Source: Limisalsivibrio acetivorans
Lineage (GTDB): Bacteria; Chrysiogenota; Deferribacteres; Deferribacterales; Geovibrionaceae
Length of the DNA: 64,000 bases
Assembly: GCF_000421105.1 (NCBI RefSeq)
Contig: NZ_ATWF01000001.1
Span: 592,930 to 656,929, forward strand
Direction of reading: 5' to 3'
Numbering within the stretch: position 1 is the first letter of the stretch; every line of letters begins with the position of its first letter. Shown here piece after piece: positions 29,717-33,928 of the stretch. The notes beneath the pieces were generated by a model, which worked only from the letters and a program-made list of their open reading frames with translations, searched no databases and was not told where the DNA came from. A program made the translations under genes and the position numbers.

Positions 29717-31276
29717 ATGTCTGAACTTTTAAAAAGGGTTCGCGATAAGAGCCTTCACAACCTCATCATGAAGCCTGAGGAGACTATCAAGTTCTTCGCA
29801 GACGCTGACAACAGAGTAATGGACCTCGGATGGTCAGGCTTCACACCCGTGGGATATCCCAAGGTTGTACCCATAGCTCTTGCTGATCACGTAGAGAAAA
29901 ACAACCTTCAGGGTAAGTGGAAGTTCAACCTTTTCATCGGTGCATCCGTTGGTGCTGAAACCGAGGACAGGTGGGCAACCCTCGACATGATCGACAGAAG
30001 ATGGCCCTATCAGACCGGCAAAAACATCGGTAAAGGTATCAACAGCGGAAAAATCAGAATGGGAGATAAACACCTCTCTATGTTCGCTCAGGACCTCAGG
30101 TACGGCTTCTATACAAAAGACAGAGGCGGCAAGCTTGACGTAGCCCTTATCGAAGCAACCGGAATAACCGAGGACGGAAACATTATCCTTGCTGGTTCAG
30201 TTGGTGCTGCTCCTGAAATCGTAGATATCGCAGACAAGATAATCGTGGAGATCAACACAAGCATACCTTCCCTTGAGGGAATGCACGACATCTTCTCCAC
30301 AGACCTTCCCCCCTACAGGAAGATCATCCCCGTTACAGATGTTAAGCAGAGAATCGGTACCCCCTGGGTCCCCACCGACAAGAGCAAGATCGTTGCTATC
30401 GTTGAATCAGACATGCCCGATAACGGACGTGCGCTCCGTGGTACCGATGATGTAGCTCAGGCCATCGCAGACAACATCGTAGATTTCTTCAAGGACGAAG
30501 TTAATGCAGGACGTCTTCCTAATAACCTTCTTCCCCTTCAGTCCGGTGTTGGTTCCATCGCAAACGCAGTTGTGGGCGGCCTCACAGCCTCACCCTTCGA
30601 AGACCTCGTAGTTTTCACAGAGGTTCTTCAGGATACATTCCTCCCCTTCCTCGATTCAGGAAAGTGCAAGTACATTAACTGTACATCTCTGTCACTCTCC
30701 AACGAAGGTTTCAAAGAGTGGTGGGAGAAGTTCGATAAGTATAAGGACATGGTTCTCATGAGACCTCAGCAGATCTCCAACAACCCTGAGCTCATCAGAA
30801 GGCTCGGCGTTATCGGTATGAACACGCCCCTCGAGTTCGACATGTATGCCCACGCAAACTCTACCTGCGCAGGCGGTACAAGGATGCTTAACGGTATCGG
30901 CGGTTCCGGAGACTTCGAGCGTAACGCTTACATCTCCATCATGCACTGCCCCTCCGTTCGTCCTTCCAAGACAGACGAATTCGGTATCACAGGCGTTGTT
31001 CCCAAGGTTCCCCATGTGGACCACACCGAGGCGGACATCGATGTTCTCGTTACCGAGCAGGGACTCGCAGACCTTCGTGGACTTGCTCCCAAGGACAGAG
31101 CGAGAGAGATCATCAACAAGTGTGCTCACCCCACTTACAAAGAGTACCTTATGGACTACCTCGAGCGTGCTGAGAAGGCTACCGGCTATCACCATGAGCC
31201 CCACCTTCTTGATGAGTGCTACAAGCTCCACCTCAGCCTCGCAGAAAACGGAACTATGCGTTTCTGGGAGAAGTAA
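29717..31276 (+). CDS. Acetyl-CoA hydrolase/CoA-transferase family, probable succinyl-CoA:acetate CoA-transferase
   Basis: 519 residues, the length of Cat1/AarC-type enzymes. The catalytic glutamate is E302 in VVFTEVLQD, which forms the covalent CoA intermediate; the glycine-rich GVGSIANAVVGGL and the VTEQGLADLRGL motif near the end bind CoA. Moves CoA between succinyl-CoA and acetate, feeding acetate oxidation or excreting acetate. It has a strong Shine-Dalgarno (AAGGAGGAAAG) and codon choice biased to a few frequent codons compared with its neighbours, consistent with high expression. Ends in a UUCG terminator. Confidence 0.9.
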   Translation: MSELLKRVRDKSLHNLIMKPEETIKFFADADNRVMDLGWSGFTPVGYPKVVPIALADHVEKNNLQGKWKFNLFIGASVGAETEDRWATLDMIDRRWPYQTGKNIGKGINSGKIRMGDKHLSMFAQDLRYGFYTKDRGGKLDVALIEATGITEDGNIILAGSVGAAPEIVDIADKIIVEINTSIPSLEGMHDIFSTDLPPYRKIIPVTDVKQRIGTPWVPTDKSKIVAIVESDMPDNGRALRGTDDVAQAIADNIVDFFKDEVNAGRLPNNLLPLQSGVGSIANAVVGGLTASPFEDLVVFTEVLQDTFLPFLDSGKCKYINCTSLSLSNEGFKEWWEKFDKYKDMVLMRPQQISNNPELIRRLGVIGMNTPLEFDMYAHANSTCAGGTRMLNGIGGSGDFERNAYISIMHCPSVRPSKTDEFGITGVVPKVPHVDHTEADIDVLVTEQGLADLRGLAPKDRAREIINKCAHPTYKEYLMDYLERAEKATGYHHEPHLLDECYKLHLSLAENGTMRFWEK

Positions 31277-31320
31277 TAACTTAGAGTTCTATCCGGCAAA
31301 GTTGGCAATACAGCAAAAGG

Positions 31321-31347
31321 GGCCCTGTCTTCGGACAGGGTCTTTTT
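31321..31347 (+). terminator. Intrinsic terminator with UUCG tetraloop
   Basis: GGCCCTGTC (31321-31329), TTCG loop, GACAGGGTC (31334-31342), then TTTTT. The stem is strong with one G-T pair at the base. Confidence 0.93.
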
Positions 31348-31428
31348 AATTAAGCTATGGCGTATTAATCTGGAAAATTCATCATCCTGACTCTATCTAT
31401 GGAATTTCCAGGGTCTGATTCTATGTAT

Positions 31429-31453
31429 GGAATTTCCCATCCATGGAAATTCC
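31429..31453. repeat. Hairpin with CATCCAT loop
   Basis: Perfect arms GGAATTTCC / GGAAATTCC around CATCCAT. Confidence 0.8.
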
Positions 31454-31539
31454 ATTATTGTTCGGGCATGGAAACCCTGCCCTCTCGCACTTCCGGCTAC
31501 GTCAGACCAGCAAAGCTGTTCTTCCTCTCGCCTTCAGAG

Positions 31540-31555
31540 CCAACATCCATGTTGG
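31540..31555. repeat. Hairpin with ATCCAT loop
   Basis: Perfect arms CCAAC / GTTGG around ATCCAT; the stem is unrelated to that at 31429 but the loop is the same. Confidence 0.7.
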
Positions 31556-31556
31556 A

Positions 31557-31715
31557 CTTAATTTATCTGGGAAATTCATCATCCTGAGAATTTCCCTGCC
31601 GCTACACTTGGCAAAGCCTTCGCTCCGCTTACTTCCGTTACAGAATATGAAGCATAGCTCCATATTCTTCACTTCAGGGCTTCCATCCCTGGAAGCCTGT
31701 TGCGTATCAACCTTA
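31557..31715 (+). repeat. Left arm of long imperfect inverted repeat
   Basis: The outer part (31557-31637) matches the reverse complement of 32491-32572 over about 80 bp with only a few differences clustered at about 31604-31611. The inner part (about 31671-31715, with GGCTTCC...GGAAGCC and TGTTGCGTATCAACC) matches the reverse complement of about 32415-32460. The intervening 30-40 bp are unrelated in the two arms. Confidence 0.85.
31678..31697. repeat. Hairpin with ATCCCT loop
   Basis: Perfect arms GGCTTCC / GGAAGCC around ATCCCT; the equivalent hairpin in the right arm (32430-32449) has loop AAGAAT. Confidence 0.75.
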
Positions 31716-32160
31716 ATAATTATCTTTCAAATGGATTTTAAAGGGGATAGTTTTTCCTACAATTTCCCAGGTTAATCACAACGCAGACCATTATAAAGTA
31801 TGCTGTCACGTGCCCGGTGCGAGCAAAACAAAGTACCCCGTGTGGATCTGTTTGATCAGTAGTCATACATTCGACCATGTAGTTGTTGCGTCCACGTCCC
31901 TTTCTTCTCCTCCCCGAATGTTTTACAGCCGAATGAGCTCTTTTGGAACCGCCCGGAAGTTTTGGCCGCACATGACAGGCCGATTAGGCAGTTTGGATGT
32001 ACAGCAGTACGCATGAAGTGCGGTTACACTCCTCAGCATCAGCAAAACTTCAGGTGGAAAAAGAGTGAAATGAGGGCACCGCCATCACTTACGAATTTAT
32101 GATAATAAATGAGTAATAATGGTGGCTTAAAAACCCTGAGGGAATAGTTTTGCATACTTT

Positions 32161-32215
32161 TGCGCCAAAAGTATGGCATGCTTTAGCACGAAGACAAATA
32201 AATTAGTGACTTATT
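32161..32215 (+). repeat. Repeat module A, copy 1
   Basis: Begins TGCGCCAAAAGTATGGCATG and ends AATTAGTGACTTATT. It matches the reverse complement of 49319-49372 with about five differences over 54 bp. Contains the small inverted repeat GCGCC/GGCatGC. Confidence 0.88.
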
Positions 32216-32252
32216 TCTAGTTTGAGTATGTATATAAAAGACTAAGGGGAAA

Positions 32253-32292
32253 TTTTTAGGGAACAAAGTTCCCCACACCCCTTAAAAACTCC
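32253..32292 (+). repeat. Repeat module B, copy 1
   Basis: TTTTTAGGGAACAAAGTTCC followed by CCACACCCCTTAAAAACTCC; includes a perfect GGGAAC-AAA-GTTCCC hairpin. It matches the reverse complement of 49388-49426 with about three differences. Confidence 0.88.
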
Positions 32293-32303
32293 TTTATCTA
32301 TCT

Positions 32304-32332
32304 GAATAATTTCCCGTCCATGGAAATTATTC
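32304..32332. repeat. Repeat module C, copy 1: hairpin with CGTCCAT loop
   Basis: Perfect 11-bp arms GAATAATTTCC / GGAAATTATTC around CGTCCAT. The same loop with a different stem occurs at 49458-49483. Confidence 0.82.
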
Positions 32333-32374
32333 TGCCGTTCGAAGAAAGAGACTTCCTTCTTACTTACGCGAGCG

Positions 32375-32394
32375 AGCTTTCATCCATGAAAGCT
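32375..32394. repeat. Hairpin with ATCCAT loop
   Basis: Perfect arms AGCTTTC / GAAAGCT around ATCCAT. Confidence 0.75.
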
Positions 32395-32414
32395 TATGCT
32401 AGTCATACAATCAT

Positions 32415-32572
32415 GGTTGATATGCAACAGGCTTCCAAGAATGGAAGCCCAGAAGGCGAAACTAAATTGAATTGTATTCAATTTATGTAGCCGGAAGTAA
32501 GCGGAGCGAAGGCTTTGCCGAGCGGAGCGGCAGGGAAATTCTCAGGATGATGAATTTCCCAGATAAATTAAG
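32415..32572 (-). repeat. Right arm of long imperfect inverted repeat
   Basis: Reverse-complement partner of 31557-31715. Shared blocks include the motif TATCTGGGAAATTCATCATC and CTTCGCTCCGCTTACTTCCG. The arms are about 160 bp each and enclose about 700 bp. A partial third copy of the outermost motif lies at about 31366-31390. Confidence 0.85.
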
Positions 32573-32607
32573 ACCAGGTAAATTCCATACATAAAATCAA
32601 TAAGCAA

Positions 32608-32631
32608 GCCGACCCCCATAAGGGGGCCGAC
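32608..32631 (-). terminator. Stem-loop below amt
   Basis: On the minus strand GTCGGCCCCC, TTAT, GGGGGTCGGC: a ten-pair stem with two G-T pairs, 38 bp after the amt stop codon. It is followed by only a moderately T-rich stretch. Confidence 0.7.
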
Positions 32632-32668
32632 AGCACAACACATTAGGAAGCAGGAACGGGTTGGGTTC

Positions 32669-33928
32669 TTAAAATTTATATGCGCTCTCACCATGCTGGG
32701 TAATATCAAGCCCTTCGGTCTCCTCGTTTGCTTCAACACGGATACCAATAGTGCTCTTTATGCCCATGGCGATTACATAACTTACTACGAATGAGAATAT
32801 ACCCGCAGCCATAATACCTGCGAACTGGAGCCATACCTGCTTGGGGTTACCGGCTATAAGGCCTTCCGCACCAAGAGTGGCGAAGATACCAGTTGCGATA
32901 GCTCCCCAGAATCCGCCGATACCGTGGATTCCGAAAACGTCCAGTGATTCATCAAGCTTGAGCTTGAACTTAAGCTGTACGCCGTAGTAGCAGAGTATAC
33001 CGGCTACAAGACCTATTATTATTGCCGCCCAAGGCTCAACAAACCCCGCAGCAGGGGTTATTGCCACAAGACCGGCTACAATACCTGATGCAAGACCGAT
33101 TCCACTGGGCTTTGATTTAATCCACTCCATAACCATCCAGCTTGTACCTGCGGCGGCGGGTGCTACCAGAGTGTTCGCAAAGGCAGTACCGGCACCAGTA
33201 CCGGCACCAAGAGCGGACCCGGCGTTGAAGCCGAACCATCCGAACCAGAGGATACCAGCACCGATGAGCGTATAGCTTACGTTATGGGGCATTGTGGAGC
33301 TTTTCATAAAGTCTTTTCTGTTGCCCAGAACAAGGGCAAGAGCGAGAGCTGCTGTACCGGATGAGAAGTGTACAACAGTACCGCCGGCGAAATCGAGTGC
33401 ACCCATTTCAAGGAGCCAGCCGTTGTCTCCCCATACCCAGTGGGCTATGGGTGCATAAACGACGGTTGCCCAGATTAATATAAAGATTACAAATGCAGAG
33501 AATTTGATCCGCTCAACAACTGCACCGCTTATAAGAGCACAAGTGATAATGGCAAACATACCCTGAAACATAGCGAATACGGAAAGGGGTATTGTTCCGC
33601 TGAGCGCTTCAAGGAAATCGCCGCCGAGGAAGAGGTACTGAAAACCTCCCATAAAGGCGGATTCTGTGGGTCCGAAGGCGATTGTGAAACCGCATATCGC
33701 CCATTGGAGACCGATAACACACATCGCTACGAAGCTGTACATTATTGTTGAAAGAGCACTTTTTGTTCTAACCATACCGGCGTAAAACATTGCCAGTCCG
33801 GGCAGCATAAAAAGAACCATGGCCGAAGAGACCAAGAGCCAGGCCGTATCGCCTGTATCTACACCGCCCTCAGCAGCGAAAGCCGCACTACTGCAAAGCA
33901 GTAAGGTAATAAGCATTATCCTTTTCAT
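32669..33928 (-). CDS. amt: Ammonium transporter (Amt/MEP/Rh family)
   Basis: 419 residues with a cleavable-looking N-terminus (MKRIMLITLLLCSSAAFAAE) and eleven membrane helices. Family signatures: DTAWLLVSSAMVLFMLPGLA at the start, FQGMFAIITCALISGAVVER and HFSSGTAALALALVLGNRK in the middle, with the paired pore histidines in the VHFSSG and GIHGIGG regions. The ATG at 33928 has AGGAGG 5-6 bp upstream; longer in-frame versions extend into the promoter. No glnK/PII gene is adjacent, which is unusual. Expression is probably nitrogen-controlled through the sigma-54 promoter upstream. Confidence 0.95.
   Translation of the reverse strand: MKRIMLITLLLCSSAAFAAEGGVDTGDTAWLLVSSAMVLFMLPGLAMFYAGMVRTKSALSTIMYSFVAMCVIGLQWAICGFTIAFGPTESAFMGGFQYLFLGGDFLEALSGTIPLSVFAMFQGMFAIITCALISGAVVERIKFSAFVIFILIWATVVYAPIAHWVWGDNGWLLEMGALDFAGGTVVHFSSGTAALALALVLGNRKDFMKSSTMPHNVSYTLIGAGILWFGWFGFNAGSALGAGTGAGTAFANTLVAPAAAGTSWMVMEWIKSKPSGIGLASGIVAGLVAITPAAGFVEPWAAIIIGLVAGILCYYGVQLKFKLKLDESLDVFGIHGIGGFWGAIATGIFATLGAEGLIAGNPKQVWLQFAGIMAAGIFSFVVSYVIAMGIKSTIGIRVEANEETEGLDITQHGESAYKF

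What the first reader, a model, noticed from the sequence alone, without database searches (positions are those of the whole stretch)
31557..32572. Long imperfect inverted repeat enclosing an unknown 700 bp segment
Arms of about 160 bp (31557-31715 and 32415-32572) are inverted copies. Outer blocks match over about 80 bp with a few clustered changes, and inner blocks share paired hairpins with different loops (ATCCCT versus AAGAAT). The tract lies between convergent genes and has no recognisable protein, transposase or known RNA. It could be a non-autonomous mobile element, a decayed element or a structured RNA locus. Partial extra copies of the outer motif nearby suggest repeated local duplication.
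Basis: seen in the sequence. Interest (0 to 1): 0.68.

Follow-up and report, generated by a model that had tools for sequence, protein, structure and literature searches.

The report
Combinatorial hairpin-cassette repeat with structured core
The supposed inverted repeat is one of about 40-50 sites in this bacterium where the gap between genes is filled by a shuffled set of small hairpin-forming repeat cassettes around a 228-base folded core; the core is otherwise unseen, and no gene that could spread it has been found.

Summary
The inverted repeat is real, but it is not the unit. The two arms are two of >100 copies of a ~155-bp cassette scattered over a 2.97-Mb genome. Each cassette is a row of four hairpins. 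Every hairpin slot holds one of 2-4 alternative stems, and the slots are reassorted: 23 combinations among 95 typed copies. The enclosed ~490-bp segment is a second repeat. Its 228-nt heart (window 31915-32142) has 38 covariance-model matches, about 33 of full length. Two subtypes, roughly 50-60% identical, keep the same three-way-junction fold: 99% of base-pair cells form and 18 of 44 pairs changed on both sides. This copy is a B/A chimera. Blocks fill intergenic gaps, mostly between convergent genes, often start within 10 bp of stop codons, have no fixed ends, and are landing sites for two IS30-type insertion sequences. The core was absent from 50 other genomes of the phylum and from plasmid, phage and viral collections. 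No Rfam match. The genome has no Y1/RAYT transposase, reverse transcriptase or TnpB. Best reading: a lineage-specific, non-autonomous intergenic mosaic repeat, working like Neisseria NIMEs or E. coli BIMEs, with a new structured core. Mobility and transcription were not shown.

The parts
31358..32600 (.). Whole mosaic block, lying between the 3' ends of the two convergent genes
   Evidence: coverage by genome-wide repeat matches; ORFs; a terminator-like hairpin just outside at 32631-32608 (-) and, by eye, one at about 31319-31350 (+)
31364..31390 (+). Fragment of the cassette's first hairpin (slot 1 type a)
   Evidence: families D4, I3
31422..31555 (+). Cassette 1, slot types b-b-b-b
31562..31715 (+).
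31569..31596 (+). Hairpin GGGAAATTC-ATCATCCTGA-GAATTTCCC; 76 genome copies with <=3 mismatches
31716..31747 (-). Linker that usually joins a cassette to the core tail, here in inverted orientation
   Evidence: HSP-end pile-up
31761..31911 (+). 5' part of the core, subtype B in this copy
   Evidence: chimera analysis
31915..32142 (+). 228-nt structured core domain (subtype A here), three-way junction; 38 model matches in the genome
32153..32175 (+). Hairpin CATACTTTT-NNN-AAAAGTATG; in four other copies an IS30-type element sits in the loop of this hairpin
32245..32292 (+). Tail hairpin and conserved CCCCT(T/C)AAAAAC; the only module with detectable homologues in relatives
32293..32411 (+). Alternative linker (type b) with two further hairpins
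32412..32567 (-).

Best explanation
This is one copy of a lineage-specific, non-autonomous intergenic mosaic repeat. It is built from (i) ~155-nt cassettes, each a row of four hairpins whose stems are exchanged as blocks between copies, and (ii) a structured core of ~490 nt. Shown: it is dispersed and high-copy; cassettes and core are chimeric; pairing is conserved by compensatory change; blocks are intergenic and concentrated between convergent genes; two IS30-type elements land in it. Inferred: new blocks arise by copying (by recombination, or with help in trans) through a step that needs the folded single strand, DNA or RNA. They persist where insertion is harmless, downstream of genes, and then decay slowly while exchanging hairpins by recombination. 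A role for the host (transcription end, mRNA 3' end, DNA topology) is possible but unproven.
For: 259 matches to the block in its own genome. 38 core matches by covariance model, 76 copies of one cassette hairpin, 104 cassettes in the fetched loci with 23 slot combinations among 95 typed; linkage is strong between neighbouring slots 1-2 and weak between slots 1 and 4. Module ends pile up at discrete positions. This core is B-type 5' and A-type 3', L065 is alike and L055 reciprocal. Core structure: 99.0% of cells paired, 18 of 44 pairs doubly changed, no shuffle reaches the number of pairs or cells with a change on both sides, slid structures drop to 38-49% paired. Between A and B consensus 28 paired sites changed and all 44 pairs still form; simulated mean 28, maximum 40. 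26 of 53 blocks lie between convergent ORFs against 6 of 58 neighbouring pairs in the window, Fisher p = 7e-6. IS30-type transposases sit in copies.
Against: No mobiliser identified: no Y1/RAYT, reverse transcriptase or TnpB. No target-site duplication or fixed end was seen, and the ends abut stop codons at many different module positions. No empty site could be shown, because gene order around the tested sites is not kept in the nearest genus. Singleton changes in paired columns keep the pair about half the time (14 kept, 11 broken), so constraint on present-day copies is mild. The tested structure was predicted from the same alignment, which favours it.
Confidence: 0.68

Rival explanations
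1. The core is a functional non-coding RNA gene family kept in ~38 copies by selection on the host; the cassettes are its processing or termination sequences.
For: Core length kept at 227-229 nt in the 30 copies matched by pattern despite two deeply diverged subtypes; strong covariation; folding z-scores -5.1 and -3.8; paired columns least diverse (0.026 vs 0.107-0.176 in subtype A).
Against: Recent (singleton) changes break pairs nearly as often as not. Copies are truncated or interrupted by IS elements. No more promoter-like sites in the block than in shuffles. Absent from the other genomes of the phylum held here.
Confidence: 0.15
2. The blocks are bidirectional transcription terminators or mRNA 3'-end stabilisers selected between convergent genes, spread by gene conversion.
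For: Convergent bias; blocks begin within 10 bp of stop codons at many loci; dense stable hairpins.
Against: At this and some other loci the flanking genes have their own terminator-like hairpins outside the block. The block's hairpins mostly lack T-runs. A 0.3-2 kb, many-hairpin structure is far more than termination needs. BOX, RUP, SPRITE and IS elements show the same convergent bias, read there as tolerance rather than function (PMC3049150).
Confidence: 0.1
3. An ordinary MITE: a transposon derivative with terminal inverted repeats (the two arms) moved by a transposase such as one of the IS30-type enzymes present.
For: Inverted arms at this locus; IS30-type transposases reside in copies.
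Against: Arms are direct, single or tandem elsewhere. The IS ends (GCAGATTGTAAT / ATTTACAATTCGC) do not resemble the arms, and the IS uses the hairpin as a target. Block ends are not constant.
Confidence: 0.05

Closest known systems
Neisserial intergenic mosaic elements (NIMEs: dRS3 hairpins plus 30-160 bp RS units)
   Same: Intergenic arrays of 0.2-2.7 kb made of short hairpin repeats separating ~30-160 bp units, mosaic in order; hundreds of hairpins per genome (PMC3898611).
   Different: Here the hairpin is GGGAAATTC-N10-GAATTTCCC, not ATTCCC-N8-GGGAAT; each cassette holds four hairpin slots with alternative stems; there is a covarying 228-nt core; no sequence relation was seen.
BIME/REP elements and REPINs (RAYT-mobilised)
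   Same: Extragenic palindromic units in composite blocks; targets for specific insertion sequences (Tobes and Pareja, PMC1525189).
   Different: No RAYT or other Y1 transposase in the genome; units are much longer; I know of no REP counterpart of the core.
Pneumococcal BOX elements
   Same: Modular A/B/C repeats with strong secondary structure, over-represented between convergent genes (PMC3049150).
   Different: No boxA/B/C sequence was looked for; blocks here reach ~1.7 kb against a reported BOX maximum of 637 bp; no fixed termini.

Membership tests
NIME (Neisseria) | dRS3 repeat ATTCCC(N8)GGGAAT flanking RS units | tested here: not met
   The recurrent hairpin is GGGAAATTC-N10-GAATTTCCC; dRS3 definition from PMC3898611
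NIME (Neisseria) | Mosaic intergenic arrays of short units delimited by hairpins | tested here: met
   Discrete module boundaries and variable order
REP/REPIN-RAYT system | RAYT (Y1 transposase, PF01797) in the genome | tested here: not met
   No match in own genome while five control genomes match
MITE | Fixed terminal inverted repeats bounding each copy | tested here: not met
   Block ends vary and arms occur in other arrangements
MITE | Target-site duplication or empty site | tested here: inconclusive
   Synteny not kept in the nearest genus; no closer genome held
Known structured RNA (Rfam 15) | Match to a family model | tested here: not met
Retroelement-derived (group II intron, retron, DGR) | Reverse transcriptase in the genome | tested here: not met
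   No PF00078 match
IS605/TnpB-guided element (omega/re-RNA) | TnpB (PF07282) or Y1 TnpA in the genome | tested here: not met
   IscB was not searched
BOX element (Streptococcus) | boxA, boxB and boxC sequence modules | not tested
   Only the genomic distribution was compared
Structured RNA (any) | Transcription of the core | not testable with these tools
   No RNA-seq available

The most novel reading that the evidence does not exclude
The 228-nt core is a new class of structured RNA or single-stranded-DNA element whose fold is needed for its own copying by an unidentified enzyme, and the surrounding hairpin cassettes are its exchangeable accessory parts: a mobile or amplifying system without any known mobiliser.
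Probability: 0.25. Interest if true: 0.8.

Novelty: new variant of a known kind. Interest (0 to 1): 0.55.

Why it matters
It adds a heavily expanded intergenic mosaic repeat in a lineage for which two literature searches on guessed relatives found none described. At least 47 kb (1.6%) of the genome is this material in the fetched loci alone. The stem-swapping cassettes and the two-lineage covariation make a natural test case for how hairpin repeats recombine and spread when no RAYT, reverse transcriptase or TnpB is present. The core's fold is a new, well-supported target for structure probing.

Tried and rejected
Known RNA: nothing in Rfam. Protein-coding core: the short ORFs are not shared in frame between subtypes and the most conserved stretch shows no codon pattern (inspection; not quantified). 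Core elsewhere: no match in plasmids or phages or in viral contigs by three patterns, one of them a cassette hairpin; the one hit among 84,980 species genomes (L110) looks like a chance match inside coding sequence. Other genomes of the phylum: no core by BLAST or by covariance model; only the tail hairpin is found in one sister genus. Y1/RAYT, reverse transcriptase, TnpB: absent. Empty-site tests by synteny for this locus and for part of twelve others: flanking genes not adjacent in the nearest genus where both were found; the last loci of the prepared list were left out of that query. Literature searches for repeats in guessed relatives gave nothing relevant.

Full report
WHAT WAS CHECKED. 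The arms exist as described: 31553-31637 against 32492-32576 (85 nt, 95%) and 31672-31717 against 32410-32455 (46 nt, 87%). They lie between convergent genes: a 519-aa ORF read as an acetyl-CoA hydrolase/transferase ending at 31276, and a 431-aa ORF read as an Amt-type ammonium transporter ending at 32669 (names from the sequence, not tested by family search, though a homologue of the second is found in relatives). A terminator-like hairpin follows the second gene outside the block, and by eye one follows the first. There is no tRNA and no Rfam family.

IT IS A GENOME-WIDE REPEAT. Searching 31350-32640 against its own 2.97-Mb genome gives 259 matches; the enclosed segment alone gives 54; one arm gives 65; one 28-nt hairpin of the arm gives 76 copies, 41 on one strand and 35 on the other. 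Forty stretches around the copies were fetched. They contain at least 47 kb of this material, about 1.6% of the genome. This is a lower bound, since further copies seen were not fetched.

ANATOMY. Ends of matches pile up at discrete positions: cassette 31420-31554, cassette 31562-31715, core from 31911, tail hairpin 32245-32292, linker 32293-32408, cassette 32408-32570. All three cassettes belong to one family. Across 104 cassettes, four consecutive hairpin slots are each filled from a small set of alternatives (2, 2, 4 and 4 main types). 95 cassettes could be typed and show 23 combinations. Association between slots is strong for slots 1-2 (p = 6e-13) and weak for 1-4 (p = 0.016), as expected if blocks are exchanged by recombination. 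The locus has types bbbb, aaaa and, inverted on the right, aada. In an alignment of 70 cassettes 26 of 40 predicted pairs show double changes, with 93.6% of cells paired; that alignment mixes slot variants, so this count is only indicative. So the inverted arrangement is one of many: other loci have cassettes in direct orientation, alone, or in tandem (for example a 416-bp period at C1:2131730-2133319).

THE CORE. Around 490 nt (31804-32289) are shared by the full copies. A 228-nt domain (31915-32142) gives 38 covariance-model matches in the genome and none in the 50 other genomes of the phylum held here, with the tool's stricter filters. 30 copies matched by pattern are 227-229 nt long. Two subtypes, A and B, are on average only about 50-65% alike over this domain, yet share the helices of a three-way junction. 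RNAalifold finds 69 pairs over the longer alignment, 20 with compensatory double changes. On 31 copies, 99.0% of cells of a 44-pair structure are standard pairs and 18 pairs have double changes. No shuffle of 500 reaches either of these or the covariation score (13 of 500 reach the count of pair types), and sliding the partner by 1-3 columns drops pairing to 38-49%. Between the A and B consensus 28 paired sites differ and every pair is kept: 12 pairs changed on both sides and 4 on one side; random changes keep 28 of 44 on average and at most 40 in 20,000 trials. Two cautions: the structure was predicted from these sequences, and the A/B contrast is essentially one deep split. The copy in the window is a chimera, B-type up to the conserved CCCCGAATGTTTT and A-type after it; L065 has the same switch and L055 the reverse one.

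SELECTION OR DECAY. In subtype A, diversity is lowest in paired columns (0.026), higher in unpaired columns (0.107) and in the apical part (0.176), but singleton changes in paired columns keep the pair only 9 times of 17 (5 of 8 in B). I read this as structural constraint on the lineages that multiply, with looser constraint on individual copies: the pattern of an amplifying element more than of a gene family in which each copy is needed. This is inference from small numbers.

CONTEXT. 26 of 53 blocks with two neighbours lie between convergent ORFs, 6 between divergent ones; in the window 6 of 58 neighbouring pairs are convergent (Fisher p = 7e-6). ORFs were called mechanically and some neighbours are IS genes, so the figures are approximate. 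Blocks often start within 10 bp of a stop codon and do so at different points of different modules, so there are no fixed ends. Two different IS30-type elements (HTH_38 plus rve) and one IS with an HTH_Tnp_1 orfA sit in copies. One of the IS30-type elements lies in the loop of the CATACTTTT-NNN-AAAAGTATG hairpin in all four cases examined.

MECHANISM. Best explanation (0.68): a non-autonomous intergenic mosaic repeat that multiplied in this lineage by a step depending on folded single strands, and whose hairpin blocks are exchanged by recombination; harmless sites between convergent genes retain it. What copies it is unknown: no Y1/RAYT, reverse transcriptase or TnpB. I did not search IS110, IscB, HUH replicases or tyrosine recombinases. 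Rivals are a multicopy ncRNA (0.15), selected terminators (0.10) and a classical MITE (0.05).

KNOWN RELATIVES. In build it works like NIMEs, which combine dRS3 hairpins with 30-160-bp RS units in arrays of 0.2-2.7 kb (PMC3898611), and shares the convergent bias of BOX, RUP and SPRITE (PMC3049150) and the IS-target role of REPs (PMC1525189). It is not filed as a member of NIME, REP/RAYT or MITE, because a defining feature of each was tested and not met; BOX sequence modules were not tested. In one sister genus BLAST finds only the tail hairpin, but by eye nearby hairpins have a similar loop with other stems (GCATTCCC-TTCCAT-GGGAATGC; up to 10 matches per genome with some compensatory variants), so lineage-specific versions of the same kind may be widespread in the family.

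LIMITS. No second strain, no RNA data, no empty site.

Noticed in passing
L069:2777-3748, L078:1011-1982, L079:3678-4649, L056:782-1753: An IS30-type element inserted in the loop of the same core hairpin in four of four copies, with an apparent TA duplication: a candidate site-specific, hairpin-targeting IS.
   Followed up: partly
L047:3116-4081, L051:1010-1975, L082:2348-3313: A second IS30-type element, also within the repeat blocks but at three different positions.
   Followed up: partly
L088 (G022:C9) around 1100-1560: A relative carries a 163-bp tandem array built on the same tail hairpin (GGGGGTGCGGGGGAACTTTGTTCC...).
   Followed up: no
L095:1550-1800 and G023:C1:496141-496510: In a sister genus, small arrays of GCATTCCC-TTCCAT-GGGAATGC hairpins with compensatory stem variants, spaced about 100-116 bp.
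   Followed up: partly
G000:C1:359-739 and G000:C2:584916-585170: The start of contig 1 and the end of contig 2 carry the same repeat hairpins with identical mismatches, so these contig ends may overlap.
   Followed up: no
L055:2604-3607: Four tandem copies of a 249-bp unit containing the type-b cassette between convergent genes.
   Followed up: no
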